Origin: Siphonodentalium dalli
Lineage: Eukaryota > Mollusca > Scaphopoda > Gadilida > Siphonodentaliidae
Reading direction: 5' to 3'
DNA: 64,000 nucleotides
Assembly: GCA_032622095.1 (NCBI GenBank)
Contig: CP136065.1
Location: 40,489,503-40,553,502, forward strand
In this document: positions 12,546-51,472 of the stretch, piece by piece
Layout: each line of letters starts with the position of its first letter
Position numbering within the stretch: position 1 is the first letter of the stretch
Program-made: the position numbers and the translations under genes
Notes under the pieces: generated by a model
The model's database searches: none
Seen by the model: only the letters and a program-made list of their open reading frames with translations
Told to the model about the DNA's origin: nothing

Positions 12546-12990
12546 TTAAATGAGGTACAGTATAGTTTGTTGGGACTTAGGCCAAATAAAATAGTACCTT
12601 CATTTCCGGTAACGGAGGGCAAAATAATTATGATAGGGAGGGGGATAAACCTCTTTTTTTCTGATTTTTTTTTAATTCCGATAATGCACAAGGCAATAAC
12701 AACCCTTAATGTATTATATATACAGATATACTATGTAATAATCTATATAGTCTATCTAGATATAATATTGTAATGAACTTGCAAGGCACTTTATTTTATA
12801 TTCTTTTATTTAAGTTTGTATTTATCATATGGCCTGGCAATAACAGGAGTCAGACTGCTCTTTGTACAAATCTCGCATGCACCACACCACTGCCTTCCCC
12901 ACATTGGACACAAAAATACTAAGTCAATACCTCTATAAAACTGATATAGACTTTATTCTAGTAGTTGAAATTATTATTTACAAATTATAT

Positions 12991-15722
12991 GCTGGTGGCG
13001 GTGCATTACTCACCCAGTGGGTTTGTGATAGAAGGAGTTCCTAGGTATGCTGGTGTCGTGAATTACTCACCCAGTGGGTTTGTGATAGAAGTGGTTCCTA
13101 TCTATGTCGGTGGTGGTGCATTACTCACACAGTGCGTTGGTGATATACGTGGTTCCTGGGTATAATAGTGGCGGTGCATTACCCACCCAGATGGTTTGAG
13201 ATAAAATCAGTTTCTGAGTACATTGGTGGCGGTGCATTACTCACCCAAATGGTTTGTGATAGAAGTGGTTCCTGTGTATACTTGTGGCGGTGCATTACTG
13301 GCCCAGATTGCTTGAGATAACATTTCTGTGTACACTGTTTACACTGGTGGCGGTGCATTACTCACCCAGTGGGTTGGTGATAGAAGTGGTTCCTGGGTAT
13401 ACTGATGGCGGTGCATTACTCACACAGATGGTTTGAGATAAAATCAGTTTCTGGGTACACTGGTGGCGGTGCATTACTCACTCAGAGGGTTGGTGATAGA
13501 AGTGGTTCCTAGGTATACTGGTGGCTGTGCATTACTCACCCAAAGGGTTTGTGATAGAAGTGGTTCCTATGTATGCCGGTGGTGTTGCATCACTCACCCA
13601 GTGGGTTTGTGATAGAAGTGGTTCCTATGTATGCCGGTGGTGGTGCATCACTCACCCAGTGGGTTTGTGATAGAAGTGGTTCCTATGTATGCCGGTGGTG
13701 GTGCATTACTCACCCAGTGGGTTTGTGATAGAAGTGGTTCCTATGTATGCCGGTGGTGGTGCATTACTCACCCAGTGGGTTTGTGATAGAAGTGGTTCCT
13801 ATATATGCTGGTGGTGGTGCATTACTCACACAGTGTGTTGGTGATATAAGTGGTTCCTAGGTATGCCGGTGGTGGTGCATTATTCACCCAGTGGGTTTGT
13901 GATAGAAGTGGTTCCTATGTATGCCGGTGGTGGTGCATCACTCACACAGTGTGTTGGTGATAGAATTGGTTCCTGTGTATAATGGTGGCGGTGCATTACC
14001 CACCCAGATGGTTTAAGATAAAATCAGTTTATGGGTACATTGGTGGCGGTGCATTACTCACCCAAATGGTTTGTGATAGAAGTGGTTCCTGTGTATACTG
14101 ATGGCGGTGCATTACTGGCCCAGATTGTTTGAGATAACATTTCTGGGTACACTGGTGGCGGTGCATTACTCACCCAGTGGGTTTGTGATAGAAGTGGTTC
14201 CTATGTATGCTGGTGGTGGTAGCTTACTCACCCAGTGGGTTGGTGATAGAAGTGGTTCCTGGGTATACTGATGGCGGTGCATTACTCACCCAAATGGTTT
14301 GTGATAGAAGTGGTTCCTGGGTATACTTGTGGCGGTGCATTACTGGCCCAGATTGTTTGAGATAACATTTCTGGGTACACTGGTGGCGGTACATTACTCA
14401 CTCAGAGGGTTGGTGATAGAAGTGGTTCCTATGTATAATGGTGGTGGTGCATTACTCACACAGTGTGTTGGTGATATAAGTGGTTCCTAGGTATACTGGT
14501 GGCGGTGTATTACTTACTGGGGGTTTGTGATAGAATTTCTTCCTGTTATACTGGTGGCTGTGCATTACTCACCCAAAGGGTTTGTGATAGAAGTGGTTCC
14601 TGGGTATACTGGTGGCGGTGTATTACTCACCCACAGGGTGTGTGATAGAAGTGGTTTCTGGGTATACTGGTGGTGGTGTAGTACTCACCCACAGGGTGTG
14701 TGATAGAAATGGCGCCTGTGTATGCTGGTGGTGGTGTATTACTCACCCACAGGGTGTGTGATAGAAATGGCGCCTGTGTATGCTGGTGGTGGTGTATTAC
14801 TCACCCACAGGGTGTGTGATAGAAATGGCGCCTGTGTATACTGGTGGCGGTGTATTACTCACCCACAGGGTGTGTGATAGAAATGGCGCCTGTGTATGCT
14901 GGTGGTGGTGTATTACTCACCCACAGGGTGTGTGATAGAAATGGCGCCTGTGTATGCTGGTGGTGGTGTATTACTCACCCACAGGGTGTGTGATAGAAAT
15001 GGCGCCTGTGTATGCTGGTGGTGGTGTATTACTCACCCACAGGGTGTGTGATAGAAATGGCGCCTGTGTATACTGGTGGCGGTGTATTACTCACCCACAG
15101 GGTGTGTGATAGAAATGGCGCCTGTGTATGCTGGTGGTGGTGTATTACTCACCCACATGGTGTGTGATAGAAATGGCGCCTGTGTATACTGGTGGCGGTG
15201 TATTACTCACCCACAGGGTGTGTGATAGAAATGGCCCCTGTGTATACTGGTGGTGGTGTATTACTCACACACAGGGTGTGTGATAGAAATTGCGCCTGTG
15301 TATACTGGTGGCGGTGTATTACTCACCCACAGGGTGTGTGATAGAAATGGCCCCTGTGTATACTGGTGGCGGTGTATTACTCACCCACAGGGTGTGTGGT
15401 AGAAATGGCCCCTGTGTATACTGGTGGTGGTGTATTACTCACCCACAGGGTGTGTGATAGAAGTGGTTCCTGGGTATACTGGTGGCGGTGTATTACTCAC
15501 CCACAGGGTATGTGATAGAAATGGCGCCTGGGTATACTGGTGGCGGTGTATTACTCACCCACAGGGTATGTGATAGAAATGGCGCCTGGGTATACTGGTG
15601 GCGGTGTATTACTCACCCACAGGGTGTGTGATAGAAATGGCGCCTGGGTATACTGGTGGCGGTGTATTACTCACCCACAGGGTGTGTGATAGAAATGGCG
15701 CCTGTGTATGCTGGTGGTGGTG
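12991..15722. repeat. 58-bp minisatellite, about 47 units
   Basis: The repeat unit runs from ctggtggcggtgcattactc through tgtgatagaagtggttcc. At 58 bp it is not a multiple of three, so it cannot keep one reading frame. Two subfamilies are spatially separated. Type A (acccagtgggtttgtgatag, agtggttcc) fills about 12991-14600. Type B (acccacagggtgtgtgatag, aatggcgcc) fills about 14600-15722 and is far more uniform. A three-unit block with ggtttgagataaaatcagtt and attactggcccagatt recurs about 810 bp (14 units) apart, showing a higher-order duplication. Confidence 0.95.
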
Positions 15723-15939
15723 CGTCTGCAGCTTTGTGCACAGCCTCATCTTCTGGTATTATGTAGATTTTAGAAGGAGGATCCTAAATAGAAAGATAAA
15801 AAGCTGCTTGTATTTTGGCACCAGGGCTACAATGTTGAACTTACTGATATTCGCAATTTGATGCATCATCAAAATCTGATTCGCTTTACAATTCTGGGTA
15901 CATCATCTTGTGACGTAGCCGATCAGTGTTTTTCATGGT

Positions 15940-36439: not shown

Positions 36440-37748
36440 TGATTTTATTCCTAAATAGACAATTTTTGTTGTAATTAGTTTTAGTTCCGACCCTCCAGGT
36501 TCGATATTTTGTCTCATAAATGAACCACATAGTTTTGATTACTCTGACTACTGATGGTATACTAGCACCTCCCATAAATCCTGAATAACATAGGTGAATC
36601 ATGGGTACAAGATAAAAAATATAGGATAGAAGCCATGGTTATTTCACACTATTATAAATATGAAAATAATTACATTTGTGCTGCTGAAATATTGTCCATA
36701 ACCCCAGCTCACCAAGAAGTATGAGACTGAATTATATCTAAATATGTCATTTTGACAAAAAAATAATCAATTTGATGCTCAATGACAAACTGTGAGATAA
36801 ATCTTACAGTTTCCAGGAGATTTCACTCCATTGTCACTATACATATTTTCTTATCTGTTACCTGCTGGTAAACAGAAAAACCACCTATTTGTTATTAGTA
36901 TTCAGTATAGGAGTATGGGGTCTGCCATGAGAGGGATGGACATCATCAATATCACGAAGAGATATATTTAAGAGGACTTATATTAAATGATTTATTAATA
37001 AGGTACTTAACACATGTATGAATTTTCACTAATGAATTAAATTTACATAATTACAAGTCTGTTAATAACTGAATACCACAACTGACTGTCACTAGCTGTG
37101 ATAGACTTACAATTGAATTTATTAACTGAGTAATTGGCAATCATGAATATTTTTGTGGGAGCTTCTGGCATGATTTAGTCCTTGTTCAAATTATTGTTGA
37201 ATGTTGGGTCAAGAGCCTGGAGCTATCTTGTTGAAAATGAAGAAACCCCCTCCCCTAGATCATGTCATGAATCTTTACTCTGCTTAGCGCCTGTAGAGAT
37301 CTTATTCCATCAGTACAAAACTTGGGAATTTTGTTATGTTTTGATAATGAACTTTATAACATTGAACAAACAAGGCAGGGAACATATTTCTTTGTTTATA
37401 TTTGTTCCACCGATAATCAACTTCAAAGTATGGGGTGGTCCCAGCTCGAAAATGCATGCTTTTTGTGGCTTTAGTGAGCTGATATCACAAAAACACTGAA
37501 TTAATTACCCTGCAGAAATTCCATGATTGTAAGTGGGCATAGCAAACTCACCCATCAAGTCTGTTAAATAATGTCATCTCGAGTTGGCACTTTCACCTAC
37601 TTATGAATAAACTATTAAGCGACAGGTATTAATAAAGAAATATATTCCCCTTGTTATTTTTTCAGCTTTATAAGGTTCTCTATCAATACTTAAAAAAGTT
37701 CCCGAGGTTTTGTACTGGTAGAATATGATTTATACGGGCATTCGCCTC
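36440..37748. other. unassigned stretch, no supported gene
   Basis: The 105-codon plus-strand frame at 37182-37499 encodes no domain I recognise. No repeat boundaries were found. Confidence 0.45.
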
Positions 37749-38582
37749 TGGGAGGCCAAATTGTCATTTAATAATGAAGTGCGCTTAAGTGCAATTAATT
37801 GCACTTAAAGGGGTACTGTACGCCATTTTCAATAAATTCCCGGTGATAACAACGATCTATTATCGATACTATATAGAAATATAAGTAATTTGAGTCGAAG
37901 ATGTATTCTGTAAACGCTCAGGTTAATAAGCTATCTTAAAATTTAATAATTTAAAAGTTAATAATTTAATATAAATTGATTTTATGGCTCCAGCCATAAA
38001 ATGGCGTCTCTTAAAATTGGAATTTCCGTGTACAAAACGTAATCAAATTATAATTGAGGGATACTGGCTTAGTAAAACAATTGCACACACGATCGTTTGA
38101 AACATTATGCTTATACGGGGAGAAAACCCAAGCCACTCATTGACTAGTGACCATACACTAACTTAAATGAGTATATGGGACTACTAAGCATATAATATAA
38201 TGTTTATTTGATTCATTTGGTTGAAAACTGTACAAAAATTACTCGACAACGACAATTTGTATTTTTGCATTCCGGTAAATTTGCCATCCGTAACAATACT
38301 TCGTACTCAACAGACTTTCAAAAAATGGAAAAGTTGTTACCTTATTCTCCGACTCGGGGATTATAGAAACCAACAACAACATCTTGGGTACAGTACCCCT
38401 TTAAGCACAAATAATTACACTTAAGCACAATTAGTTGAACTTATCATTGTGCTTAAGAGCAATAAGTGCAATCGATTGTGATTAAGCATAGTGATTTGTT
38501 CTTGAAAACATAATTATTTGTGCTTAAGCGCAATCAATTTTGCTTACGCACAATCAATTGCCTAATCTTAAGCGCATTTCAT
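37749..38582. mobile_element. CTTAAG-palindrome-array element I (hosts a nested MITE)
   Basis: The left end tgggaggccaaattgtcatt leads into gcgcttaagtgcaattaatt. The right part (38401-38582) is an array of cttaagcacaa and cttaagcgcaa units ending cttaagcgcatttcat. The 592 bp between them are a separate TTAA-flanked insertion. This is a diverged member of the family seen cleanly at 39685-40176. Confidence 0.7.
37809..38400. mobile_element. piggyBac-type (TTAA) non-autonomous element nested in element I
   Basis: Ends aggggtactgtac and gtacagtacccct are inverted. TTAA lies directly outside both ends (37805-37808 and 38401-38404). The target TTAA is the centre of a CTTAAG palindrome of the host element. 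The interior is AT-rich and has no transposase. Confidence 0.8.
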
Positions 38583-39138
38583 GGTTATACATGTATGTAA
38601 CTAAACACCCCTGGTGAATAAATAGGTTTATCCATAACTCAACCTTAGCTCTTATTGACATATCACCTCTTGTTTTCATTGGTTTGCATGGGAGCAAGCC
38701 TAAGTTCTTTATCGAAATGGTAGACTCGCAATAGCATTACCTTCTGTTTTAGTTGTGGCAACTCGTGGTAGTATTAACTTCTGTATTAGTTGGGGCAACT
38801 TTGATTTTCGAGTACATATACAGGTACACCATATTAGGGAAGCAGGTCCTCAGTGACACCATATTCGCGCTACAGTATATGACCTGGAAATACTATAGAT
38901 CTGTGCAAGAGCCGCTGATTTAATCAAACTACCAGAGCTCGAGGAGTGAGACATCAAAGCTCCCGGAATGAAACACCAATTTTTGGGACAGGGATGCTGA
39001 TAATATGACAATAGGGTTTTTCACCCGATTTAAGTCAATAAGTACACCATATGAGGTAAGCAAGCCCTTATACAGTGACACCACATTATTGCTATATGAC
39101 CATAGCTATGGCCCAAATATATGCCCCAAAGTCATATT

Positions 39139-39628
39139 AGCCAAATTGACATTTAATAAATAATTGAGCTTAAGCGCAATAAGGAATCCCTTATTGCGCT
39201 TAAGCGCAATAAGAAAATTCCGTATTGCGCTTAAGAGCAATAAGAGATTCCTTATTGCGCTTAAGCGCAATAAGAGATTCTTATTGCGCTTAAGCGCAAT
39301 AAGGAATATTACATAAACTCCCTATAATTCAAATGGTTTAGTCCATGGTGCAATCAATATATATATCCCTGTTAACAGGCAATATATGATAATTCTACTA
39401 TTTGCAGAGGGGTGATCTCATGAGGGAGATAATAATTGCGCTTAAGCGCAATAAGGATGTAATTACGCTTAAGCGCAATAAGGGATGTTCTTATTGCGCT
39501 TAAGCGCATAAGGGAAGATCTAATTGCGCTTAAGCGCAATAAGAATATTCCTTAAGTGTTAAGCGCAATAAGAGATTCCTTATTGCGCTTAAGCTCAATT
39601 ATTTATTAAATGTCAATTTGGCATCCCA
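39139..39628. mobile_element. CTTAAG-palindrome-array element II
   Basis: Inverted ends agccaaattgacatttaata and tattaaatgtcaatttggc lead into arrays of gcgcttaagcgcaataag: about five copies in the left arm and six in the right, spaced 20-30 bp. The unique core (39305-39435: ccctataattcaaatgg, ccctgttaacaggca) reappears inverted in element III. Confidence 0.85.
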
Positions 39629-39684
39629 TAAGAGTAGAGATTCATGGCATGATCTACCCTCCTCCCAATATATCTAATACTGTA

Positions 39685-40176
39685 TGGGATGCCAAATTGA
39701 CATTTAATAAATAATTGAGCTTAAGCGCAATAAGGAATCTTATTAAGAACATTCCTTATTATACGCTTAACCGCAATACATCCTTATTGCGCTTAAGTGC
39801 AATTAATATCTCCCTCATGAGAAAATAGTAGAATTATCCTATATTTGCCTGTTAACAGGGATAGAATCTGATGGAATCTGAATAGGCCTACACGTGGACA
39901 GTCACCATGTGACCAATAAACTCCACCCATTGCACCATGGACTACACTATTGGAATTATAGGGAGTTTATGTAATATTCCGTATTTGCGCTTAAGTGCAA
40001 TAAGGAATATTCTTATTGCACTTAAGCCCAATAAGGAAATTCCTTATTGTGATTAAACGCAATAATGAATCTCTTATTGTGCTTAAGGGCAATTATATTT
40101 TTCCTTATTGCGCTAATAAGGGATTCCTTATTGCGCTTAAGCTCAATTATTTATTAAATGTCAATTTGGCATCCCA
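39685..40176. mobile_element. CTTAAG-palindrome-array element III (492 bp)
   Basis: It has complete inverted ends tgggatgccaaattgacatt and aatgtcaatttggcatccca. Each arm is an array of gcgcttaagcgcaataagg-like palindromes. The core is an inverted relative of element II with extra sequence (39865-39930). The word aatactg flanks both ends (after a TA on the left and a C on the right), a probable 7-bp target duplication. Non-coding. Confidence 0.85.
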
Positions 40177-41705
40177 CAATACTGGGCCACACATTTTGAA
40201 ATTAGTTATTTTAATACTACAGGTCACTGTTGGAGACTTTAATTCAATTTGAATCTGCAAGGCCTGTACTAGTGTAGGCCTACTGCGGCCAGTCCAGTTC
40301 AAAGCCATACATGTACATTTTAGTGTCAAATTGCACTTGCTACATGTACATTTTTCTGACGCTATCTACCCACACTGTTTTTTTTTAAATCTGCGTGTTT
40401 GAACGATAGGTTCTCCAAAAGTTCCCATTAATTGTGACCTGAGTCACTCTCCTGGGTCATCAGGATGAGAATTCCCGCTGTTGACAATATTCAATTATAA
40501 TGTCAACAACATAGCCTGATCTGATCACACGAACTTCAATTCGAACCGAGTTTTTGACAAGTTTTCCAGGCAATAATCGTTGATTTCATATGTGAGGACC
40601 CAACATTCCCATTCAACACAACATACACGGAGATAAAACTCTGATAATCTAACTCAAATATGCGTTCTAACTAATTAAGTTTTAATTAATTTATTTGGTC
40701 TTGAGAATGAGAGTTATTATTCTCAAAACAATCGTATCAAATTGGTGACGAAAGATCGCCGACCAATCGGATCGCGCGGATTGGAATTGTGGCTAAAAAT
40801 AGTTATCTGCGGGATTCCGCCGTATATATATATGTTATTGCTTCAGTCAATCGGGGTATACCGGGGAAGATTGTTGTGTCCCTTTAATTATTATTTCCCC
40901 AAAAATCTCAAATGATACAAAACACCCTTTTGGAAGACTAATAGTCTAGAGTCGTCAGTTAGTTAATCCGATTACCTATACCGCTAAGCACATAAGCCGC
41001 TTACACCTTTTAATTGGAGCCGGCCGTTTACACATTATAGTGTATTTCAGAAAGAAAAAGTTGTATAAAATAAACAAATTTGTGAATTTAAAAACAATTC
41101 AAACGTTATTGTATTCCATTTCCCAGCCCGGAAATGTACACCAAATTTCATTAATATCCATCGAGAAACAACAGACCAATCGCCATAAAACTCCCCGTTT
41201 ACATCTTTTATGAGGAGCCGGCCTCAGCATCGGCATACACTTTATAGTGTGTCCCCTCAAGCACACATTAGCAGTACCGTAATCTACCTGTACAGATTTT
41301 GTATTCAGACATCGACACTGTATATACAAGAAAACCATAGTCAGAAATGGTAACGCCACCAAGATTATAGTATTACATATAAATAGAAATTATAAAAAAT
41401 ACATAAAATATTTTGATAACAATTGCGTTTAAACAAGTAATCCTTCAAATTATTACTAACAAAGCAAGTAAACGACTGTGTGGTCACTCAACAGATTATA
41501 AAGACTTGGACTTAGTATACTGTAAATACTAAAATTTAAATGAAATAATTAAAAGATAAAATTTAGCAAGTAGTAAAAGTTAATTTTCTCATTTAATTTG
41601 TTTTTTTTTGGGTTAAATAAAGCAATAATTTAAATGTAACATTTGGTTTTTTAAAAATGATTGACCGTGGCTCTTCCAATAATTGCGCGACTGACCTGGT
41701 CAATT
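40177..41705. other. unassigned stretch with an old duplication
   Basis: A diverged ~80-bp segment (gccgtttacac, ggagccggcc, ttatagtgt) occurs near 40990-41050 and 41190-41260. The 35-bp word set around 41288-41322 (cctgtacagattttgtattc) also occurs at 53329-53363 in the 3' region of a minus-strand LINE. No gene is supported. Confidence 0.5.
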
Positions 41706-41945
41706 GTTCTTAAGAAGTTGTTTTGAGAATTACTATGGAGGGAAATACTGAGTTATGTCTGTGGCTTCGCAAGTAATTAACTTGGTGACGTGATGTTAAC
41801 AAATCTGAACTCCAGTAAACCAAGGACGCTCCATACCCAATATAAGGTAAATTAATAATTCTTTACAAGTTGTTTTAAGATTTACTATGGAGGGAAAGAA
41901 TTGTGGTGATGGCTTCGCAACTATTTGACCTCATTGTAACAAATA
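41706..41945. repeat. tandem duplication, ~155-bp period
   Basis: The order aagttgttttgag, tactatggagggaaa and tggcttcgcaa occurs at 41715-41780 and again at 41869-41930. Confidence 0.65.
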
Positions 41946-42366
41946 TAAATATTAGTCACTCAGGCAATAGATGTATCTATTCTGTATATTAAGTTATTGG
42001 GTCTTACGTGTCTTGAGATGTCTAAATAGTTTTCGATGGACAGATCGCACAAGGGACCCACGCCAATCTTCTGTTGGGATTCCTATTGTTGGCTTATTAA
42101 ATATGCACATATGCTTAAGATACAGTCACGCGCGAAGCACGCTCCCGTAAGTCGGGTTTTGGATCCCAGTTAATGAAAATATCATTGAAATAATCGGTTT
42201 CCCCCAATAAACATCCATATATTCAATATACATGTTTTGGAGCAGAATTAGGCAGTCCATATTGGACGCCATCATGGAATTTATTTTGTTTTGTTTTAAT
42301 TTTCACACATATTTATTAGTTATGTGGATGGAGTTCTCATTAAAACTCACATCCTTATATTGGTTA

Positions 42367-42845
42367 CAGTAATGCCCAAAGTAATTGACCACTTAACCAC
42401 ATCAGACTTATTGGTAATTTTTCAGCATTTAAAATCCTGAAAAATTACAAATAATTCTGCTCTGGTTAAGTGGTCAATTACTTTGAACATTTCTGTATGA
42501 GGATTGAGTTATCATTAAATCTCAAATCCTTATATTGGTTACAGTAATGCCCAAAGTAATTGACCACTTAACCACAGCAAAATGATGGGTATTTTTTCAG
42601 CATTTAAAATCCTGATAAATTACCCATTATTCTGCTGTGCTTAAGTGGTCAATTACTTTGAACATTACTGTATGAGGATTGAGTTATCATTAAACCTCAA
42701 ATCCTTATATTGGTTACAGTAATGCCCAAAGTAATTGACCACTTAACCACAGCATAATTATGGGTAATTTTTCAGGATTTAAAATCATGAAAAAATACCC
42801 ATAATTTTGCTGTGGTTAAGTGATCAATTACTTTGGACATTACTG
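42367..42845. repeat. 175-bp tandem array built from a TA-type MITE (3 units)
   Basis: Three 129-bp palindromic elements (42367-42495, 42542-42670, 42717-42845) start cagtaatgcccaaagtaatt and end aattactttgaacattactg. Each is bordered by TA. A 46-bp spacer (gaggattgagttatcattaa, atccttatattgg) separates them, so the period is exactly 175 bp both times. The ends and TA flanks are those of Tc1/mariner-type MITEs. Constant spacing and shared spacers show tandem amplification of element plus flank, not repeated insertion. Confidence 0.9.
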
Positions 42846-43905
42846 TATGTAGATGGAGTTAAACCTCACAACAGTGTGTTGGGGATTTGGACCTTGACTT
42901 GGGACCTTTGGTTTTTAACGCAACAAATGCGCGTACACCATATACACAAATTTCTTATGTAACCAGAGTTTTTCTTGGATAAGATGAGTTTGAAGCCTGC
43001 TAACATTTCAAAATGTTGTCAGTTTTGTATTCTCTGCAGCGGAACTCGACGCATTGAAGCAAAAGTTACAAGAGATAAAATGTGTACGTAACGAGACTAT
43101 AATACAAATGAAAAAATAAATTCAGGGAGGGGTGGGCGATACAGGGAACTAAGGGTTGAACCGATATAAATTTATAGAGCGATAATGACCAATGTTGACA
43201 TATTATGCATCTCAACTCTACTGAACATTGCAACAAGGCTATAACATAGGGGGTGTCAGAATCTTAGTCATCTCTATAGTGCCAGAATAGTCATTTATGG
43301 ACTTCTATAAGATGTTGGGTTGGTTATATGGACTCGGAGAAAAAGGAGTTTGTACCGATGAACTGACATAAAAAGTGGAGCGATGTTGCCATGTAACGTA
43401 TCGCGACTGTACTATATAAAATTGGGGGGGGGGTATGAAATTATCTCTATGTCTATAGATGGCACCAGGATTATATAGAAAGGAATAGCAATTGATATAC
43501 GTATACGGTATACTATAGTAATACCATATACATATAAGTACAAGTATCACGCGATAAAATATTACGTAACGTGACTATACCGATGAAAGAAATAAATAAA
43601 TTGGACCCGGATTAGAGGTTGGGTTGGTTATATGTGGATAATTGGATATGGAATTCATACCGATGAAACGATACAAATTAGTGGAACGATAAAGACCAAT
43701 GTTGACACTTAGTCAGGCTACGCGGGAGAAAATAGGGGTTGATACGATAGACCAAAATAAATTTGTCGGGTGATAATGACCAATGTTGATGTATAAAGTA
43801 ACGCGACTGTACTGTCGCACAATTATCAGGTGTAACCAGTCAAATGTGGACTCTAGTGCCCAATATGGAACAGCTCAGAAAATATTTGCAGGGCCCTAAA
43901 ATTTA
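42846..43905. other. unassigned stretch with degenerate repeats
   Basis: The words gataatgaccaatgttgac (43185, 43693, 43771), taacg(t)atcgcgactgtac and ataccgatgaa recur irregularly, showing old duplications of 80-100 bp. A G-run lies at 43423-43432. No gene is supported. Confidence 0.5.
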
Positions 43906-43906
43906 T

Positions 43907-44266
43907 TTAACATGGCATTTGCCATTAAAATCGATTTATGTCGATAAAACTGTCATTTTTCAAAATTTTAAGCTGAGACTTGGTGTTTGTGCGTGGGATA
44001 GTTATATGTTATATATTCCTAAAATGACAGAGTACAGCACGTAATTATGTTTTAGATGGAAGAAATGAATTTTTTTCAATGATAAAATTTAACATGGCAT
44101 TTGCCATTAAAATCGATTTATGTCGATAAAACTGTCATTTTTCAAAATTTTAAGCTGAGACTTGGTGTATGTGCGTGGGATACATATATATTCCCAAAAT
44201 GACAGAGTCCAGCGCGTAATTATGTTTTAGATGGAAGAAATTGAATTTGTTTTCGATAATAAATTT
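43907..44266. repeat. 182-bp tandem duplication (2 units)
   Basis: The segment ttaacatggcatttgccatt through tgttttagatggaagaaat starts at 43907 and again at 44089 with few differences (a small deletion near 44190). An open frame at 43844-44044 covers only one copy and is not retained in the second, so it is probably not coding. Confidence 0.85.
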
Positions 44267-44568
44267 GCAGCGTGGACTGGACGGGTCAACCCGGTCATCG
44301 AGTGCGCTTAATTTATAAACAAAGTTTTGTCAATAGTCGTTTTGGTCAAACTATCCCTTTTTAGACCGGGACAGCAGATCCGAATAGTAGCTAAGATGTA
44401 TTTAGATAGAATTATCAAAAGAATTTGACCGATTCGGGTGTAGTTTAAGAGAATCGAGTGGAGAAATCTTGGTGATAATTCCAGAAAATAAAGATGGCGG
44501 AGAATCACAATGAAACTACCCACAATTCATTTCACTACACCAGGGGGGTTCGCAATGGTTACACATTA

Positions 44569-45008
44569 TTTTCAGTCTATCAAATTATTTATATTTTCAA
44601 CAACAAGTGACTTTAAGTTTACAATTTCAGCCTATCCTGACTCTATCGATACGATTTATCATATTTTCATAAACATATTATACACCGGTGGCGTTAACTT
44701 TACAATTTCGGCATCTACGTGATTATATCGGTACGATTGAGTAATGGTACAAAACAAAATGTCCAAGAATACATTAGGGGCCCCCAATGGGTTATATATT
44801 ATTTTCAGTCTATCAAATTATTTATATTTTCAACAACATATTATTACACCGGTGACTTTAAGTTTACCATTTCAGCCTGTCCTGACTCTATCGATACGAT
44901 TTATCATATTTTCATAAACATATTATACACCGGTGGCGTTAACTTTACAATTTCGGCATCTACGTGATTCTATCGGTACGATTGAGTAAGGTACAAAAAA
45001 TCTCCAAG
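44569..45008. repeat. 243-bp tandem duplication (2 units)
   Basis: The segment from ttttcagtctatcaaattat to gtccaagaa begins at 44569 and 44812. Both copies keep a similar open frame (44510-44722 and 44719-44967) ending ILYTGGVNFTISAST. The second copy has a small in-frame insertion. The peptide has no recognisable domain. Confidence 0.85.
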
Positions 45009-45017
45009 AACTTACAG

Positions 45018-45470
45018 TTGGATGGCCGAGTGGTTAGCGTGTTCGACTACCGGCCAGAGGTTTCGCTTGGACCCCGGATCGATTCACCTCGATCCTCGAC
45101 AAATCAAAAAGTCGGGAGCTCCGAGCGTACCTATATAAAGTACCGTGAATGCCTCGCTGAGGTGTCGTGAAGCGGTAATCCTCTCCCGCCCGGTGTCATG
45201 TACAGGGATGACACTGGTTTGATCACGCCGTCCCATCGGATGGGGACGTAAATGGCTGTCCCGTGTACAACCATGTGTGCACGATAAAGATAAAGAACCC
45301 TACTGTGGGCAACGATCCACGGGTTAATGGCAAACATCTCCTGTCAAAATTCCTCCCTTCGTCAAAATACACAGGGCAAGACTTATCAATCCAAACTGTG
45401 GAGTGTGTTTTCGTTGTGTATTTTTCGCATATACCCATGGTTATATATAAACGGGCTACGAGCATCTGAC
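45018..45470 (+). mobile_element. tRNA-derived SINE
   Basis: The head (about 45018-45091) carries a pol III A box (tggccgagtggttagcg, 45023-45039) and a B box (ggatcgattcacc, 45076-45088) with tRNA-like spacing. It resembles a Leu/Ser-type tRNA but lacks a proper cloverleaf. A non-tRNA body follows with gatcacgccgtcccatcgga, tggggacgtaaatgg and gataaagataaagaaccc. A conserved central body of this kind is typical of animal superfamily SINEs, but I cannot name the family. A T-rich segment follows. The minus-strand frames across it are incidental. Confidence 0.75.
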
Positions 45471-46313
45471 TGCTGTTGTTTTTTTCTATTTCATTTGCAC
45501 CAAAACTTTTAAAATAGACAAAAACACCAAAAATGATTTTTTTTGGAAAAGAGTCAAGCCTAAACATTCATAGGGCCATATTTTAATTTTCTTCAATTTT
45601 TTTTGTAATTCTTTAACAGTTTGTTCAATCTAGTATACTTAATGTTAATATGAGAAAAGTAGAGCATATGGATATCAATTATTTAATTTTGCTCTAGCTT
45701 TTAAAATACTTTTCCAGAAAATGTGGAATTTGGCACATTCCCACGGTTTCTTTCTTTAAGTTGATAATAAACGCTCTTTATTTGTAATTATTAGTGCCTC
45801 TTTAAGTCATCTGAGGTCAATATCAACTATCCCATGACACTCCCTGTGTCAATTTATCTATGTGTGCACAAATTATCCCACATATCTTCTGAGCTGATAA
45901 CAAGCGCTCTTCGTTGATCATCTACAGTACCGGTACATGTATGTTTTTTTACTAAGTTAAAAAAACGCATTTAGTCCCTTTAAATGCAAACAATAAATAT
46001 CAGAAAATGTTCGACTTATAGCCTAGTTAGTTTGAAATATACCAGGTATGAAATTCCAAAAAAAAGGGGGTGTCTGATGGATAAACCCCACCCCTATCAC
46101 CAATTCACCACAATGTTTAGTTATAAAAGGGTTAATTCCAATGGAGTATTTAGTATTATTTACTGAAAATGAACAAGTCATTCACATTATTTACCCAAAA
46201 CTCAGTCTAGTTTGGACACAAGTGAAACAGATACATGTATGTACAATACTACAATATTGCAATTTAAATTTGTTATTATATTCCCAATATTGAGCCAATA
46301 TGGTCATTTATAA
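45471..46313. other. unassigned AT-rich stretch
   Basis: The words aaacgctctttat (45770) and aagcgctcttcgtt (45903) belong to a motif seen elsewhere. No gene is supported. Confidence 0.45.
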
Positions 46314-46317
46314 TTAA

Positions 46318-46583
46318 CCCTTCCATGACTGGGGATTCTTGAAATTTTGTGTAAACCCTGTGCCAATGCATTCTCTTACTTATATAAAGATCATGTGCCA
46401 GTGCATTCTCTTATATATGAGTCTCCCATAGGGATCCTCACATATATGAGAGAATACATTGGCCTAACAATATTTACCTCGACCTTGTAAACAAGTGTAT
46501 TCTCTTATATATGCAGGGCTCCCTATGGGAGACTCATATATAAGAGAATGCACTGTCACAGGATCTTTAATTCTACAAACGGG
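46318..46583. mobile_element. TTAA-type palindromic MITE, copy H (reference copy, 266 bp)
   Basis: TTAA lies at both borders (46314-46317 and 46584-46587). The ends begin ccc and finish ggg, as in piggyBac-type elements. Inside are two hairpins built on gtgcattctcttatatatg and its complement, separated by ggcctaacaatatttacc and the partner linker. Other copies lie near 1.3, 5.5, 6.2, 12.3, 35.0, 35.2 and 36.2 kb. Confidence 0.8.
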
Positions 46584-46874
46584 TTAATATAATTTATCTT
46601 GGCAGAATATGGACAAACTGATTATAAGTCTTCAACAAAGATGCCTCCTTCTGACATTCTCTGTACGCGGTTACATATTATACAAAGTTTGAAAGCTTTG
46701 TGCAATTAATTTGCCAGTCAATTACTAATATTATGGAGTCACACATTCGTAGCTCCATTCCTTCATCAATTCAATATTTAATACTTAAAAATAGTATGAA
46801 ACTATAATCGATGTAAACAATGTTTCATTGTGTTGACATTTGGCTCTTCAAGTTTGAAAATCTTCTGGCTTGTG

Positions 46875-46937
46875 GAACAGTTTGTTACGGGCGCTTAAGC
46901 GCAAATAAATAATAAATGTGAAAGGGCCTCCCATATG
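46875..46937. mobile_element. CTTAAG-array element, right-end fragment
   Basis: It reads gcgcttaagcgcaaataaat, then aataaatgtgaaagggcctccca. This is one terminal repeat of the type at 46996-47837 with its arm missing. Confidence 0.7.
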
Positions 46938-46995
46938 AAACAACCATTGTTGAGCCATCTATTAACTGATATTGGAGAATAAATACCAGCAACTA

Positions 46996-47837
46996 TGGGA
47001 GGCCCTTTTCACATTTATTATTTATTTTTACGCTTAAGCTCAAATCATTTGCACTTAAGCGCAAATAGATCATATTTGCGCTTAAGCGGAAATCATTTGC
47101 GCTTAAGCAGAAATCATTTGCGCTTAAACCCAAATAAAAATTAATATGCATTGACCCCCCTGAATTAATTTTAAATGGCACAGGCCTAAACACATCACTA
47201 AAGTTTATATAGCCCCACCATATGACGGAAACAATCCCCAGTAACCTCAATATATGTTGTATGACCATGGAAATGGTATAGATCTGTGCAGGATATGTCT
47301 CTTTTATAAAATATACTATATCTCTGGGATGGAGACACACATTCTTGGGGACAGGGATGCTGATATTATGAAAATAGGGGTTTATCCCCTATTTCAAGTG
47401 AATAAGTACACCATATGAGGGAAGCAAACCCCCAGTAACCCCTAATTCCCTATTTATGGCCATGGAAATGGTATATATCTGTGCAGGAGATGTCCCTTTA
47501 ATAAAATATACTTGAGCTCTGGTAGTGAGGCACCAATTTTTGGGACACCAGGGACAGAGATGCTGATATGCATATGGATTGTTTTTTCTTCAACTTTCAA
47601 CTACTATGGGCCATTATAATATAATATGAGATGGACTCAATCATTCACATCAGAGGGATGTAAGGGAGTGTTAGGTATATTCGCTTAAGCCCAAATGATT
47701 TGCGCTTAAGCGCAAATAAATTGATAGCCACATATTTGCGCTTAAGTGTAAATGATTTGCGCATTTATGATTTACGCTTAAGCACAAATATTTGCACTTA
47801 ATCGCAAATAAATAATAAATGTGAAAAGGGCCTCCCA
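46996..47837. mobile_element. CTTAAG-palindrome-array element V (842 bp)
   Basis: Inverted ends tgggaggcccttttcacatt and aatgtgaaaagggcctccca lead to arrays of gcgcttaagcgcaaat units, five in each arm, many mutated. The word agcaac occurs on both flanks (followed by TA on the left and preceded by ca on the right), a likely target duplication. The ~500-bp core (ggcacaggcctaaacacatc, gacagggatgctgatat) is shared with 48088-48672 in inverse orientation and weakly with 38820-39120. Confidence 0.85.
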
Positions 47838-48087
47838 CAAGCAACAAGTAAAATTAATAAACAATTATTTATTAATATATTAAATAATAATCAAAATTAA
47901 ATAGCTCAGCAATATCCCCTTGCTAGCCAGATATCGCCAACTGATTTTGACTTGTGAACTGCTCGTCTCATTCGCTTAATTCACGTCACTAGTCCAGACT
48001 CCAGTGCATTTATGAGAAAATATTTCAAGCCCGTAACTAATTGCAACATAATTTGTTTTTGCTGAAATAAGTACCGGCACATAAATA

Positions 48088-48672
48088 TGGGAGGCCCTTT
48101 TCACATTTATTATTTATTTGCGCTTAAGCGCAAATATTTGTGCTTAAGCGTAGTAAATCATTTACGCTTAAGCACAAATCATTTGCGCTTAAGCGCAAAT
48201 ATGTGTCTATCAATTTATTTGCGCTTAAGCGCAAATACCTAGCACTCCCTTACATCCCTCTGATGTGAATGATTGAGTCCATCTCATATTATATTATCAT
48301 GGGCCCATAAAGTTGAAGAAAAAAAATTCCATATGCATATCAGCATCTCTGTCCCTGGTGTCCCAAGAATTGGTGCCTCACTCCCAGAGCTCAAGTATGT
48401 TTTATTAAAGGGACATATCCTGCACAGATCTATACCATTTCCATGGTCATAAAACAGATCTTGGGGTTACTTGGGGATTGTTTCTCTCATATGGTGGGGA
48501 AATATAAACTTTAGTGATGTGTTTAGGCCTGTGCCATTTAAAATTAATTCAGGGGGGTTCAATGCATATTAATTTTTATTTGCGCTTTAGCGCAAATGTT
48601 AGAGGTTATTTGCGTTTAACCGCAAATATTTGAGCTTGAGCGTAAATAAATAATAAATGTGAAAAGGGCCTC
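48088..48672. mobile_element. CTTAAG-palindrome-array element VI (inverse of V)
   Basis: It has the same ends and palindrome arrays as element V. The core is reversed relative to V (ctgtccctggtgtccca, ctataccatttccatggtca, gatgtgtttaggcctgtgcc). It is shorter because part of the core is deleted. The right end is slightly damaged (cctcca). Confidence 0.85.
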
Positions 48673-50500
48673 CAATACAGAAACCCTCCATAAACAACAA
48701 ACTCAATATCAGCAAAAATCGCAAAAAAAGAAAATAGGTGAATTTTGTGATAAAAATTTGGGAAAATTTGCTGAAATCATCAATTTATGGATATTCAATA
48801 ATTCATGGATGTGTATAAAAAAATGAAATTCATATGTCATACAAATATCATGCCTATTTTGTCAAACTCAATTTGCTGAATCCAGAACTGAAAACCGTAA
48901 TTCCCAGATTCGTTAAGTATTTTTCGAATTGTATGCCTTCAAATACGTGTTTGCCTCAATTTTGCAGAATTAATTATTGTAATATTGATGATTCAATGAC
49001 TCGAATGAGCCAAATACCATATCTTATGGTTAATAATTAAAAATACTACAGCAACTTGAAACTGGGCGGTTTTTTCAGTGTTTTAGTAATGTAATTACAA
49101 CATTAGATGGAAAAAAATATATTAATATGCGCATCTGTGATTAAGAAGAAAATTATATTCTAATATAAAATTATAACAATGGTAATTGGTATGGACTTGG
49201 CCAAAATTGCCTCCGAGTCTGACACAGAAGTTCGAACTGTGTGATGAAAACGTTCAGAATCGACAATCGAATCATGATTCATATATCTCGAAACAGCACA
49301 CAACTCTATGATATTATATACTTTTTCATTTAAGTGCAATAATGCCGTTTTAGCGTTTCTAAATTTCCAAAACTGTCGAAAATGTAAATTTGTAAAACGC
49401 AAGGTAACGTAACAAAAATGTACGCAAAGTAGTCATGTGCGTATATTGAGCATGACGCTTTCTCGTTTCTATGGTGTTATAACTTCCGGCGAGTCATGCG
49501 CAGAAGTATCGCCTAATCACGGATAGCAGCTATCCTCTACCGTAAGGTGATAGACATTTCAGGTGATGGTGTAATAGAGTTATCTCTCCTCGGTAGTGAC
49601 TGGTGCCAGGGAACTTAAATAACGGGAAGGTTCACTTCCCATTGGTTCTATTGTAATGCGTACCGCCGCAGCGCCCTCTTGTGGTCGGTAGGTTAAACCG
49701 AGAAATGCGTCTATGGATACACTATAGAATTCTATAGAGTTGCTCATTTCTCCCGTCCAAAAATCATTTTAAAACAGCATTTAAACCAAATGTTCCCTAT
49801 TTTGTCGATATGTCCATAAACAATACGCATTGACCTACACTATATTGAACTTTCTGAGGAAAGTTACTACTAATGTCCAGTTAAAACGATGAAAAGCATC
49901 ACCCAAATTCGCTGTCAATCAGTCAATTTGTATACAACTGAACTTTTTTTGTTTGTATTTTTTTAGTACTATAATATATAACTACATGCGTATCTGAATT
50001 ATAATATATGGCATTGACCAGTCATTTATAGAACTTAAATCAAAATTTAGCCAAAATAGTTTTTTTTTTAATTTTATGAACCGGCCATAGGGACATATTA
50101 TAGGCCTACCAGTCAGTACCGGTACCACTACCATATTACCATTATTCATTACTAATAACTTTACTTGCAGTTCTACCATCCCAATTATCTTAAGTCCATT
50201 TACCAGGCTGGAAACTGGATAGATCAATCATGAACTAATATAATAGAGTATATATAACTAATATAGGCCTATTATTACTAGTAAGTCTATTATTAACCAA
50301 GTGCTACACTTCAAAGTCCAGCTGACACACTGGAAAACTTTTACATATCTCATGTCATTAAATTGACTCAAAAATAATTCCTCAAAATGATCTAGGTCTA
50401 GTCAGGCATTGCTCACAATGACACCATTTTAGATTATACAACATTTTATTCAATGCACATGTATGAAGATCAGAAAACCCAATTATTTTTAAGCATTTAT
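48673..50500. other. unassigned stretch, no supported gene
   Basis: Small frames (48834-49040, 49160-49402, 49982-50227) encode no recognisable domain. No repeat boundaries were found. Confidence 0.45.
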
Positions 50501-50504
50501 ATCT

Positions 50505-50635
50505 CACTTACGCTTAAGCGTATTTCAAATATGTAGGAGGCGTAATTCATATTTAATATCTTATTAATATTACGCTTAAGTGTAATTCAGATTTCCATTA
50601 CACTTAAGCCTAATGGAATTTGGCATCCCACGATT
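50505..50635. mobile_element. CTTAAG-array element remnant
   Basis: Three mutated palindromes (acgcttaagcgtattt, acgcttaagtgtaatt, acacttaagcctaat) precede the family end ggaatttggcatccca. The left end is decayed. Confidence 0.6.
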
Positions 50636-51187
50636 CCCACCACACAATTATGGATTTATAGATTTACCGTACACTATAAGTGCAAATGAAATGCACTTCT
50701 TGACTTAACCATAATTAAATTAGATTAAGTTACCACCCCCGTGTATTTTTTTTATTTATATATTATTTTTATATAAAATAATATAATAAAATTTAAAACA
50801 AAATTCCCTGATTCCTGTGATGGAATCGCGCATGTTGATTGTCATTACTGAAAATTTGAATTTTGTCTCCCATAACTCCCATTTTGCATTTTGATAATTT
50901 TTTTTACTATGAATACATGTACCGGTGCAATAGCATTACATTAAATTAAATAAGTATATTGTAAATGATGAAATACTCCCAAATGACAGATGTCAATCTA
51001 CACTTATTAAGCATACCATTATTTGAAGGGTAATTAATGCCCAATATGTCATTATATGATATATATCAATGAATTTATAGTGAAAGACTAATAGTACATA
51101 CAGAAACTAGAACAAAATGCTATAAAAAAAAACTTGATCAATACATTTTTACAAATGTCAAATTAAGTGGATTCCAAGGACCCATGC

Positions 51188-51472
51188 TGGGAAGCCAAAT
51201 TGACATTTAATAAATAATTGAGCTTAAGCACAATAAGGAATCTTCTTATTGCGCTTAAGCGCAATAAGGAATATTCTTATTGCACTTAAGCGCAATTAGA
51301 TCTTCCCTTATTGCGCTTAAGCGCAATTAGCTCTTTTTGCGCTTAAGCGCAATAAGAATATTCCTTATTGCGCTTAAGCGCAATAAGACTATAAGAGATT
51401 CCTTGCGCAATAAGAGATTCCTTATTGCGCTTAAGCTCAATTATTTATTAAATGTCAATTTGGCTTCCCATA
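51188..51472. mobile_element. CTTAAG-palindrome-array element IV (minimal, ~283 bp)
   Basis: Ends tgggaagccaaattgacatt and aatgtcaatttggcttccca enclose almost nothing but seven gcgcttaagcgcaataag-type palindromes, with no unique core. The word ccatgc flanks both sides (directly at the left, after TA at the right), a probable target duplication. This is the simplest member of the family. Confidence 0.85.

What the first reader, a model, noticed from the sequence alone, without database searches (positions are those of the whole stretch)
37749..51472. Family of elements whose arms are arrays of the palindrome GCGCTTAAGCGC
At least six elements or fragments (37749, 39139, 39685, 46996, 48088, 51188) share ends starting TGGGA(G/T/A)GCC. 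Both arms are arrays of 5-6 copies of a 12-bp palindrome centred on CTTAAG, spaced 20-30 bp. Two subfamilies differ in the linker (caataag versus caaat) and in terminal sequence (caaattgacatt versus cttttcacatt). The minimal member at 51188 is little more than ends plus seven palindromes, which suggests the array is the functional part, perhaps transposase or host-factor binding sites. Possible target duplications of 6-7 bp (aatactg, agcaac, ccatgc) lie 0-2 bases outside the ends. I cannot place it in a known superfamily.
Basis: partly seen in the sequence, partly recalled or inferred. Interest (0 to 1): 0.75.

Follow-up and report, generated by a model that had tools for sequence, protein, structure and literature searches.

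The report
Transposons with palindrome-array ends
The repeats are short mobile DNA elements of a eukaryote genome whose two ends carry arrays of one 12-letter palindrome; their ends fit the IS3EU group of transposons, and some larger gene-bearing relatives in the same genome carry comparable arrays built from other palindromes.

Summary
GCGCTTAAGCGC occurs 11,364 times in the 2.23-Gb eukaryote genome, the reversed control 33 times. Three subfamilies of ends occur 936, 1,082 and 1,904 times as exact matches, controls 0. The true termini are 5'-T(A/G)TGGGANGCC. Of 16 nearest-end pairs, 12 carry an exact 6-bp target duplication; none matches at 3-5 or 7-10 bp. One empty paralogous site exists for the copy at 39683. 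Such termini and 6-bp duplications are the published signature of IS3EU/GingerRoot DNA transposons. The outermost palindrome stands 37 nt from both termini in 7 of 14 elements, within 2 nt in 3 more. Four integrase-type (PF24764) gene hits lie between inverted TACGG ends 27-41 kb apart, in two families with arrays of other palindromes at about 21-bp spacing; for one 28.2-kb pair a 6-bp duplication was read. Best reading: non-autonomous IS3EU-type elements whose arrays are family-specific, iteron-like binding sites for the transposase. Not shown: the autonomous partner of this family, and any protein binding.

The parts
37747..38578 (+). E1: left end TCTGGGAGGCC and left palindrome array of a C-like element, interrupted by a nested TTAA element; core-like sequence continues to about 39130, right end not found in the window
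37809..38400 (.). Nested element with TTAA duplication, inserted into a CTTAAG palindrome of E1 (not part of the family)
   Evidence: empty site at two other genomic places (L024/L043 and L029/L044)
39139..39630 (-). E2: subfamily A element, left end truncated in the window; intact paralogues have TSD AGAGTA
39683..40178 (+). E3: complete subfamily A element, TATGGGATGCC..GGCATCCCACA, 6-bp TSD ATACTG; core inverted relative to E2
   Evidence: empty site
46891..46935 (-). E4: right-end fragment of subfamily B
46994..47839 (+). E5: complete subfamily B element, TSD AGCAAC, 5+5 palindromes
48086..48677 (-). E6: subfamily B element with its core inverted relative to E5; CATAAA/CAGAAA (5 of 6) beside the ends
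50510..50632 (-). E7: right-end fragment ending GGCATCCCACG
51188..51472 (+). E8: minimal subfamily A element, little more than two ends and seven palindromes; CCATGC on both sides, left end lacks the outer 2 bp
39717..39800 (.). Left palindrome array of E3; first CTTAAG starts at element position 38
39987..40144 (.). Right palindrome array of E3; last site ends 37 nt from the right end
47030..47131 (.). Left array of E5, five sites, mostly 21-bp spacing
47681..47805 (.). Right array of E5, five sites

Best explanation
The elements are non-autonomous DNA transposons of the IS3EU/GingerRoot kind. A DDE integrase-like transposase encoded elsewhere in the genome is taken to cut at T(A/G)TGGGA..TCCCA(T/C)A and insert with a 6-bp staggered cut. 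The subterminal arrays of the palindrome are taken to be multiple binding sites for the transposase as a dimer, through an N-terminal helix-turn-helix, or for a partner protein of the same element. They would gather many protein copies at each end, in register with the cleavage site, and give a family its specificity. Some related families in the genome have the same layout with their own palindromes, which suggests that site and DNA-binding domain change together. Shown: termini, 6-bp duplication, one empty site, the usual register to the terminus, arrays at both ends, and a like layout beside PF24764 genes set between inverted ends 27-41 kb apart. Inferred: binding, dimerisation, mobilisation in trans, co-evolution.
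For: 12 of 16 nearest-end pairs have an exact 6-bp duplication; permuted flanks gave 0 at 6 bp. Empty site for E3. Termini and TSD match published IS3EU/GingerRoot features. First CTTAA(G) starts at nt 38 and the last ends 37 nt from the other end in 7 of 14 elements; 3 more are within 2 nt. Family c: inverted ends TACGG..CCGTA 28.2 kb apart, GTTTTA on both sides, a PF24764 hit near one end, and 33 copies of CTGATATATCAG at 21/22-bp spacing between that hit and the terminus. Family f: two PF24764 hits inside end pairs 40.9 and 39.5 kb apart; GCGTTTAAACGC (1,691 against 50 control) in arrays near both ends of shorter copies, mean spacing 21.3-21.4. Of 14 PF24764 hits sampled upstream, 5 show clear palindrome arrays (L087, L090, L092, L093, L098) and 2 weak ones (L091, L099). 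A PF24764 protein of another group has a weak N-terminal HTH_23 match.
Against: No PF24764 gene was found beside GCGCTTAAGCGC: none within the 1.5-kb flanks of the 30 loci returned and none in the short samples at 14 further hits. PF24764 was not compared with a named IS3EU transposase, so that link rests on termini and TSD. The 28.2-kb element was not read inside, and no duplication was read for the other three giant pairs. IS3EU is described as always TA..TA, so the TG/CA ends here fit GingerRoot better. Of the 14 sampled hits, 6 showed no array (two of them about 97% alike) and 1 a non-palindromic 23-bp array; L056/L081 have a non-palindromic 21-bp array, so dyad symmetry is not universal. 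Inside the family mirror positions do not covary in general: of 6 mirror pairs one is significantly positive and one significantly negative. Spacing shows no sharp helical period. The HTH match is below its curated cut-off and comes from group 1, which has no array in the stretch seen.
Confidence: 0.7

Rival explanations
1. The elements are IS3EU-type transposons, but the palindromes bind a host factor, or act as DNA hairpins or cruciforms during replication or repair, rather than the transposase.
For: Perfect dyads up to 24 bp in the arms; host-factor sites would also stand near the ends; no binding data exist either way.
Against: Relatives in the same genome with a like layout use unrelated palindromes, which one host factor would not recognise; two families have non-palindromic arrays, which hairpins do not explain.
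Confidence: 0.15
2. The arrays are satellite-like by-products of slippage or gene conversion inside the arms, without function.
For: CTTAAG number varies from 2 to 11 per element; changes within the family are mostly one-sided, as in neutral decay; 3 of 14 elements depart from the usual distance to the terminus at both or one end by more than 2 nt (L025, L026, L048 first element) and E6 does so on the right.
Against: Same distance of the outermost site from both termini in 7 of 14 elements, within 2 nt in 3 more; arrays recur in other families. Of the first 50 genomic palindromes, 22 lie within 1.5 kb of an exact A, B or C end against 0.23 expected at random; of the other 28, three (in L001 and L054) have variant ends nearby and 25 were not examined.
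Confidence: 0.1
3. A different superfamily with 6-bp duplications: hAT6, Dada (6-7 bp, recalled) or a Polinton/Maverick derivative.
For: hAT6 and Polinton also make 6-bp duplications, and Polintons are large and carry integrases (recalled).
Against: TAYGG..CCRTA termini fit IS3EU; sister giants enclose PF24764 hits; none of the 149 DNA polymerase B matches listed lies inside the four giant end pairs (only 69 of 1,596 candidates scored, so weak).
Confidence: 0.1

Closest known systems
IS3EU / GingerRoot DNA transposons (PMC10045372, PMC12730594 and, for Styx, PMC10853768: passages seen)
   Same: TA..TA or TG..CA termini, TAYGG..CCRTA, 6-bp target duplication, integrase-like gene in sister families, non-autonomous copies
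   Different: Arrays of a family-specific palindrome in both subterminal regions were not mentioned in the passages seen; gene-bearing end pairs here are 27-41 kb apart
Galileo and other Foldback-like P elements (PMC3688188, abstract seen)
   Same: Long internally repetitive ends; multiple transposase binding sites within tandem repeats of the ends, found there by footprinting and sequence
   Different: Different superfamily; THAP domain; P-type duplications of 7-8 bp (recalled) against 6 bp here
Hermes (hAT) subterminal repeats (PMC10368747, passages seen)
   Same: Transposase DNA-binding domain recognises short subterminal repeats, cooperatively where two form a quasi-palindrome, in strict register with the TIR
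   Different: Irregularly placed sites with a 4-bp core, hAT ends; no regular long arrays
Iterons of plasmid replication origins (recalled)
   Same: Arrays of about 21-22-bp spacing read by a replication protein
   Different: Replication control, not transposition; analogy only

Membership tests
IS3EU / GingerRoot | TA..TA termini (GingerRoot occasionally TG..CA) | tested here: met
   Among 19 pairs chosen for at least 5 of 6 TSD matches (some of them paralogues of E2 and E3), left ends are 17 TAT, 1 TGT, 1 TTT and right ends 16 ATA, 3 ACA. The TG/CA ends fit GingerRoot, not IS3EU in the strict sense
IS3EU / GingerRoot | TAYGG..CCRTA termini (reported for fungal IS3EU) | tested here: met
   TATGGGA here; TACGG in families c and f
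IS3EU / GingerRoot | 6-bp target site duplication | tested here: met
   12 of 16 exact; empty site
IS3EU / GingerRoot | TIRs longer than 30 bp (reported for fungal IS3EU) | tested here: met
   Both ends of E3 match the same 51-nt query at 51 of 51 positions; the first palindrome is included
IS3EU / GingerRoot | IS3/IS481-like DDE transposase encoded by the autonomous member | tested here: inconclusive
   PF24764 hits found in sister families c and f, not for this family
IS3EU / GingerRoot | Transposase groups with IS3EU/GingerRoot in a tree | not testable with these tools
   No named IS3EU protein was at hand
Polinton/Maverick | Protein-primed DNA polymerase B | tested here: inconclusive
   No listed PF03175 match inside four giant relatives, but only 69 of 1,596 candidates scored
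Polinton/Maverick | AG..CT termini (recalled) | tested here: not met
   Termini are TAYGG
P element / Galileo | 7-8-bp duplication (recalled) | tested here: not met
   0 of 16 at 7 or 8 bp
hAT6 | hAT transposase | not tested
   No hAT model was searched

The most novel reading that the evidence does not exclude
In this eukaryote genome an iteron-like array of a family-specific dyad, spaced about two DNA turns, is a common recognition module of IS3EU-type transposons, including giants of 27-41 kb. Each transposase lineage would have its own palindrome, with GCGCTTAAGCGC and GCGTTTAAACGC as close variants differing by one symmetric change. That would give a natural set of paired DNA sites and DNA-binding domains.
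Probability: 0.45. Interest if true: 0.75.

Novelty: new variant of a known kind. Interest (0 to 1): 0.6.

Why it matters
If arrays of family-specific palindromes are common in IS3EU-type transposons, the sites can be read directly from sequence for each family and paired with its transposase. That makes the question of how these integrase-like enzymes find and pair distant ends testable, including between ends that lie 40 kb apart.

Tried and rejected
Autonomous partner of the GCGCTTAAGCGC family: not found. PF24764 hits were compared with the listed places of A, B and C ends (only the first ~100 places per search are printed, all on contig C1) and by short samples upstream of 14 hits. The 21-bp-spaced array at C1:155769299 lies 13 kb from a group-1 gene and a B end at C1:167947736 lies 19 kb from another, on different sides of the gene; judged coincidence, not tested. 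Group 1 (21 loci compared, mostly 96-99% alike) was considered as partner and set aside: no CTTAAG array in 3.5-6.5 kb.

Strict helical phasing as a rule: rejected for the whole set (broad maximum near 11.5, none at 10.5 bp); spacings near 21 bp hold for B and for families c, d, f and g and L098.

Symmetric covariation as evidence for a dyad within the family: tested, not supported overall.

Viral contigs: two exact end/array patterns, 0 matches. Rfam: 0 matches in the window; tRNA scan: 0. PDB: no sequence relative of the group-1 PF24764 exon at E up to 1. One regex script timed out with no output and one stopped with an error after its first locus.

Never answered, so dropped: PF13683 search, a 21-bp-spaced triple-palindrome pattern, genome count of CCTGATATATCAGG.

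Literature: eight searches of the open library, several with more papers found than listed. In the listings and the passages seen I met no report of palindrome arrays in IS3EU ends; the original GingerRoot paper was not among the 9 papers found for that name, and Repbase/Dfam were not available.

Full report
What was checked. All six places in the finding exist. The window has 46 sites within two mismatches of GCGCTTAAGCGC against a mean of 0.45 in shuffles, and reading that list all 46 fall in eight elements or fragments. CTTAAG occurs 54 times (21.5 expected from base composition), 46 of them inside 3,730 bases of element. Genome-wide the exact palindrome occurs 11,364 times, the reversed control 33 times. 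Three consecutive cores at 20-22-bp spacing occur 653 times, overlaps counted, control 0.

Ends and target duplication. A blind scan for inverted repeats flanked by direct repeats returned E3 (39683-40178, ATACTG) and E5 (46994-47839, AGCAAC) with 6-bp duplications, among many rows caused by the palindromes themselves. This moves the ends 2 bp outwards to T(A/G)TGGGANGCC. In loci from the window and genome, pairing each left end with the nearest right end and counting each flank once gave 16 pairs; 12 have an exact 6-bp duplication, one a 2-bp match, none at 3-5 or 7-10 bp; permuted flanks gave 0 at 6 bp. Two of the four misses are pairings of neighbouring elements (37747 with the right end of E2, 48086 with that of E8), one is 5 of 6 (L049), one has no duplication (L015). 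The flanks of E3 joined with a single ATACTG occur once in the genome, at C8:144424481: an empty site. E2 is truncated in the window, but paralogues have AGAGTA on both sides.

Subfamilies. A (…GCCAAATTGACATTTAATAAATAATT) has 433+503 exact ends, B (…GCCCTTTTCACATTTATTATTTATTTG) 555+527, C (…GCCAAATTCACATTTAATAANNAATTG) 957+947; all controls 0. Over 316 neighbouring pairs of sites, spacing peaks at 30-31 bp (139), 20-21 (40) and 26-27 (34). In 14 elements measured the first CTTAA(G) starts at nt 38 and the last ends 37 nt from the other end in 7; L007, L047 and E5 are within 2 nt; E6 keeps the left distance only; L025, L026 and the first L048 element depart. E8 was measured as if its missing 2 bp were present. 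Cores of the E1, E5 and C copies share sequence.

Placement. IS3EU families in Repbase are described as always having TA..TA termini and usually 6-bp duplications; GingerRoot has 6-bp duplications, mostly TA..TA and occasionally TG..CA (PMC10045372, passages). Fungal IS3EU elements carrying a TET gene end with TAYGG..CCRTA and have TIRs over 30 bp (PMC12730594, passages). Styx, whose transposase suggests an IS3EU origin, has a 36-bp TIR and 6-bp duplications, and a copy with a non-functional integrase gene was mobilised (PMC10853768, passages). The family here has TATGGG..CCCATA, some TG/CA ends, and 6 bp. This is membership by structure; the transposase criterion is untested for this family.

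Transposase-bearing relatives. PF24764 (integrase core) has 126 matches, some of them pieces of one gene; 150 of 241 candidates were scored. Upstream of the hit at C4:26602969 lie 33 copies of CTGATATATCAG at 21 or 22 bp, then …GGCCGCCGTA|GTTTTA. The inverted end TACGGCGGCCTGGAACCGCC occurs 116+122 times, control 0; the end at C4:26576442 is preceded by GTTTTA. That points to one 28.2-kb element with a 6-bp duplication; its inside was not read. A second end pair spans C4:60622662-60649741 (27.1 kb) with its own PF24764 hit; its flanks were not read. In family f, TACGGAAGCACTGTAGCGCC occurs 34+37 times, control 0; end pairs at C8:155464449-155505324 and C7:164195858-164235351 enclose PF24764 hits; their duplications were not read. 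Its arrays are of GCGTTTAAACGC (1,691, control 50), near both ends of shorter copies such as C1:44706488-44710268, spacing mean 21.3-21.4. GCGTTTAAACGC differs from GCGCTTAAGCGC by one symmetric change.

Sampling of other hits. Upstream stretches were read at 14 PF24764 hits. Five show clear palindrome arrays: L087, L090 (TCCTAATTAGGA, 21 bp), L092 (GGCGTTTAAACGCC, 21), L093 (TCGTGGCCACGA, 20) and L098 (AGTTAGCTAACT, 22). Two are weak: L091 (TCCC-GGGA type, irregular) and L099 (two palindromes at the edge of the sample). One, L089, shows a non-palindromic 23-bp array. Six show none (L088 with L101 and L102, L094 with L103, L095 with L105, L096 with L104, L097 with L106, L100); L088 and L100 are about 97% alike. 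Among the loci returned, L056 and L081 have a non-palindromic 21-bp array and group 1 none (10 of the 30 were run). Most samples are 100-111 bp, so 'none' may mean the array lies elsewhere.

Mechanism. The simplest reading is that the arrays are binding sites read as dyads by the transposase. The PF24764 protein of group 1 carries an N-terminal HTH-like stretch (HTH_23, E 3e-4, below the curated cut-off). Precedents for repeated subterminal transposase sites are Galileo (abstract) and Hermes (passages). Binding, dimerisation and trans-mobilisation are inferred. Against the simple version stand the non-palindromic arrays, the samples without an array, the lack of general mirror covariation within the family and the absence of a sharp helical period.

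Verdict. A real, abundant, structurally unusual family, best filed as non-autonomous IS3EU/GingerRoot-type by termini and duplication, with a subterminal palindrome-array layout shared by some giant gene-bearing relatives. New variant of a known kind; the function of the array is the open, testable point.

Noticed in passing
window 37809-38400: Element with AGGGGTACTGTA ends and a TTAA duplication nested in a CTTAAG palindrome of E1; two other genomic places (L024/L043 and L029/L044) show the empty site. A similar element sits in the first palindrome of L045.
   Followed up: yes
window about 37062-40887: E2 and E3 with a constant 52-bp spacer recur at 9 other places among the loci fetched from C1, within a larger repeat; several copies stop at the same right boundary, 40887. 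What multiplies this unit is unknown.
   Followed up: partly
G000:C8:155464449-155505324 and G000:C4:26576442-26604659: IS3EU-type end pairs 41 and 28 kb apart enclosing PF24764 hits; the rest of their content was not read.
   Followed up: partly
L056 3113-3552, L081 3071-3504, L089: PF24764 genes with upstream arrays of 21-23-bp direct repeats that are not palindromes.
   Followed up: partly
   Followed up: no
L058-L080, L085: Group 1: near-identical PF24764 gene copies with split open frames (21 loci compared), repeat longer than 3.5 kb, no palindrome array seen.
   Followed up: partly
window 12988-15723: Tandem array of a 58-bp unit, about 47 copies.
   Followed up: no
genome-wide: Many DNA polymerase B open frames of about 950 and 1,310 codons with nearly equal scores, which may mean recent self-synthesising elements.
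   Followed up: no
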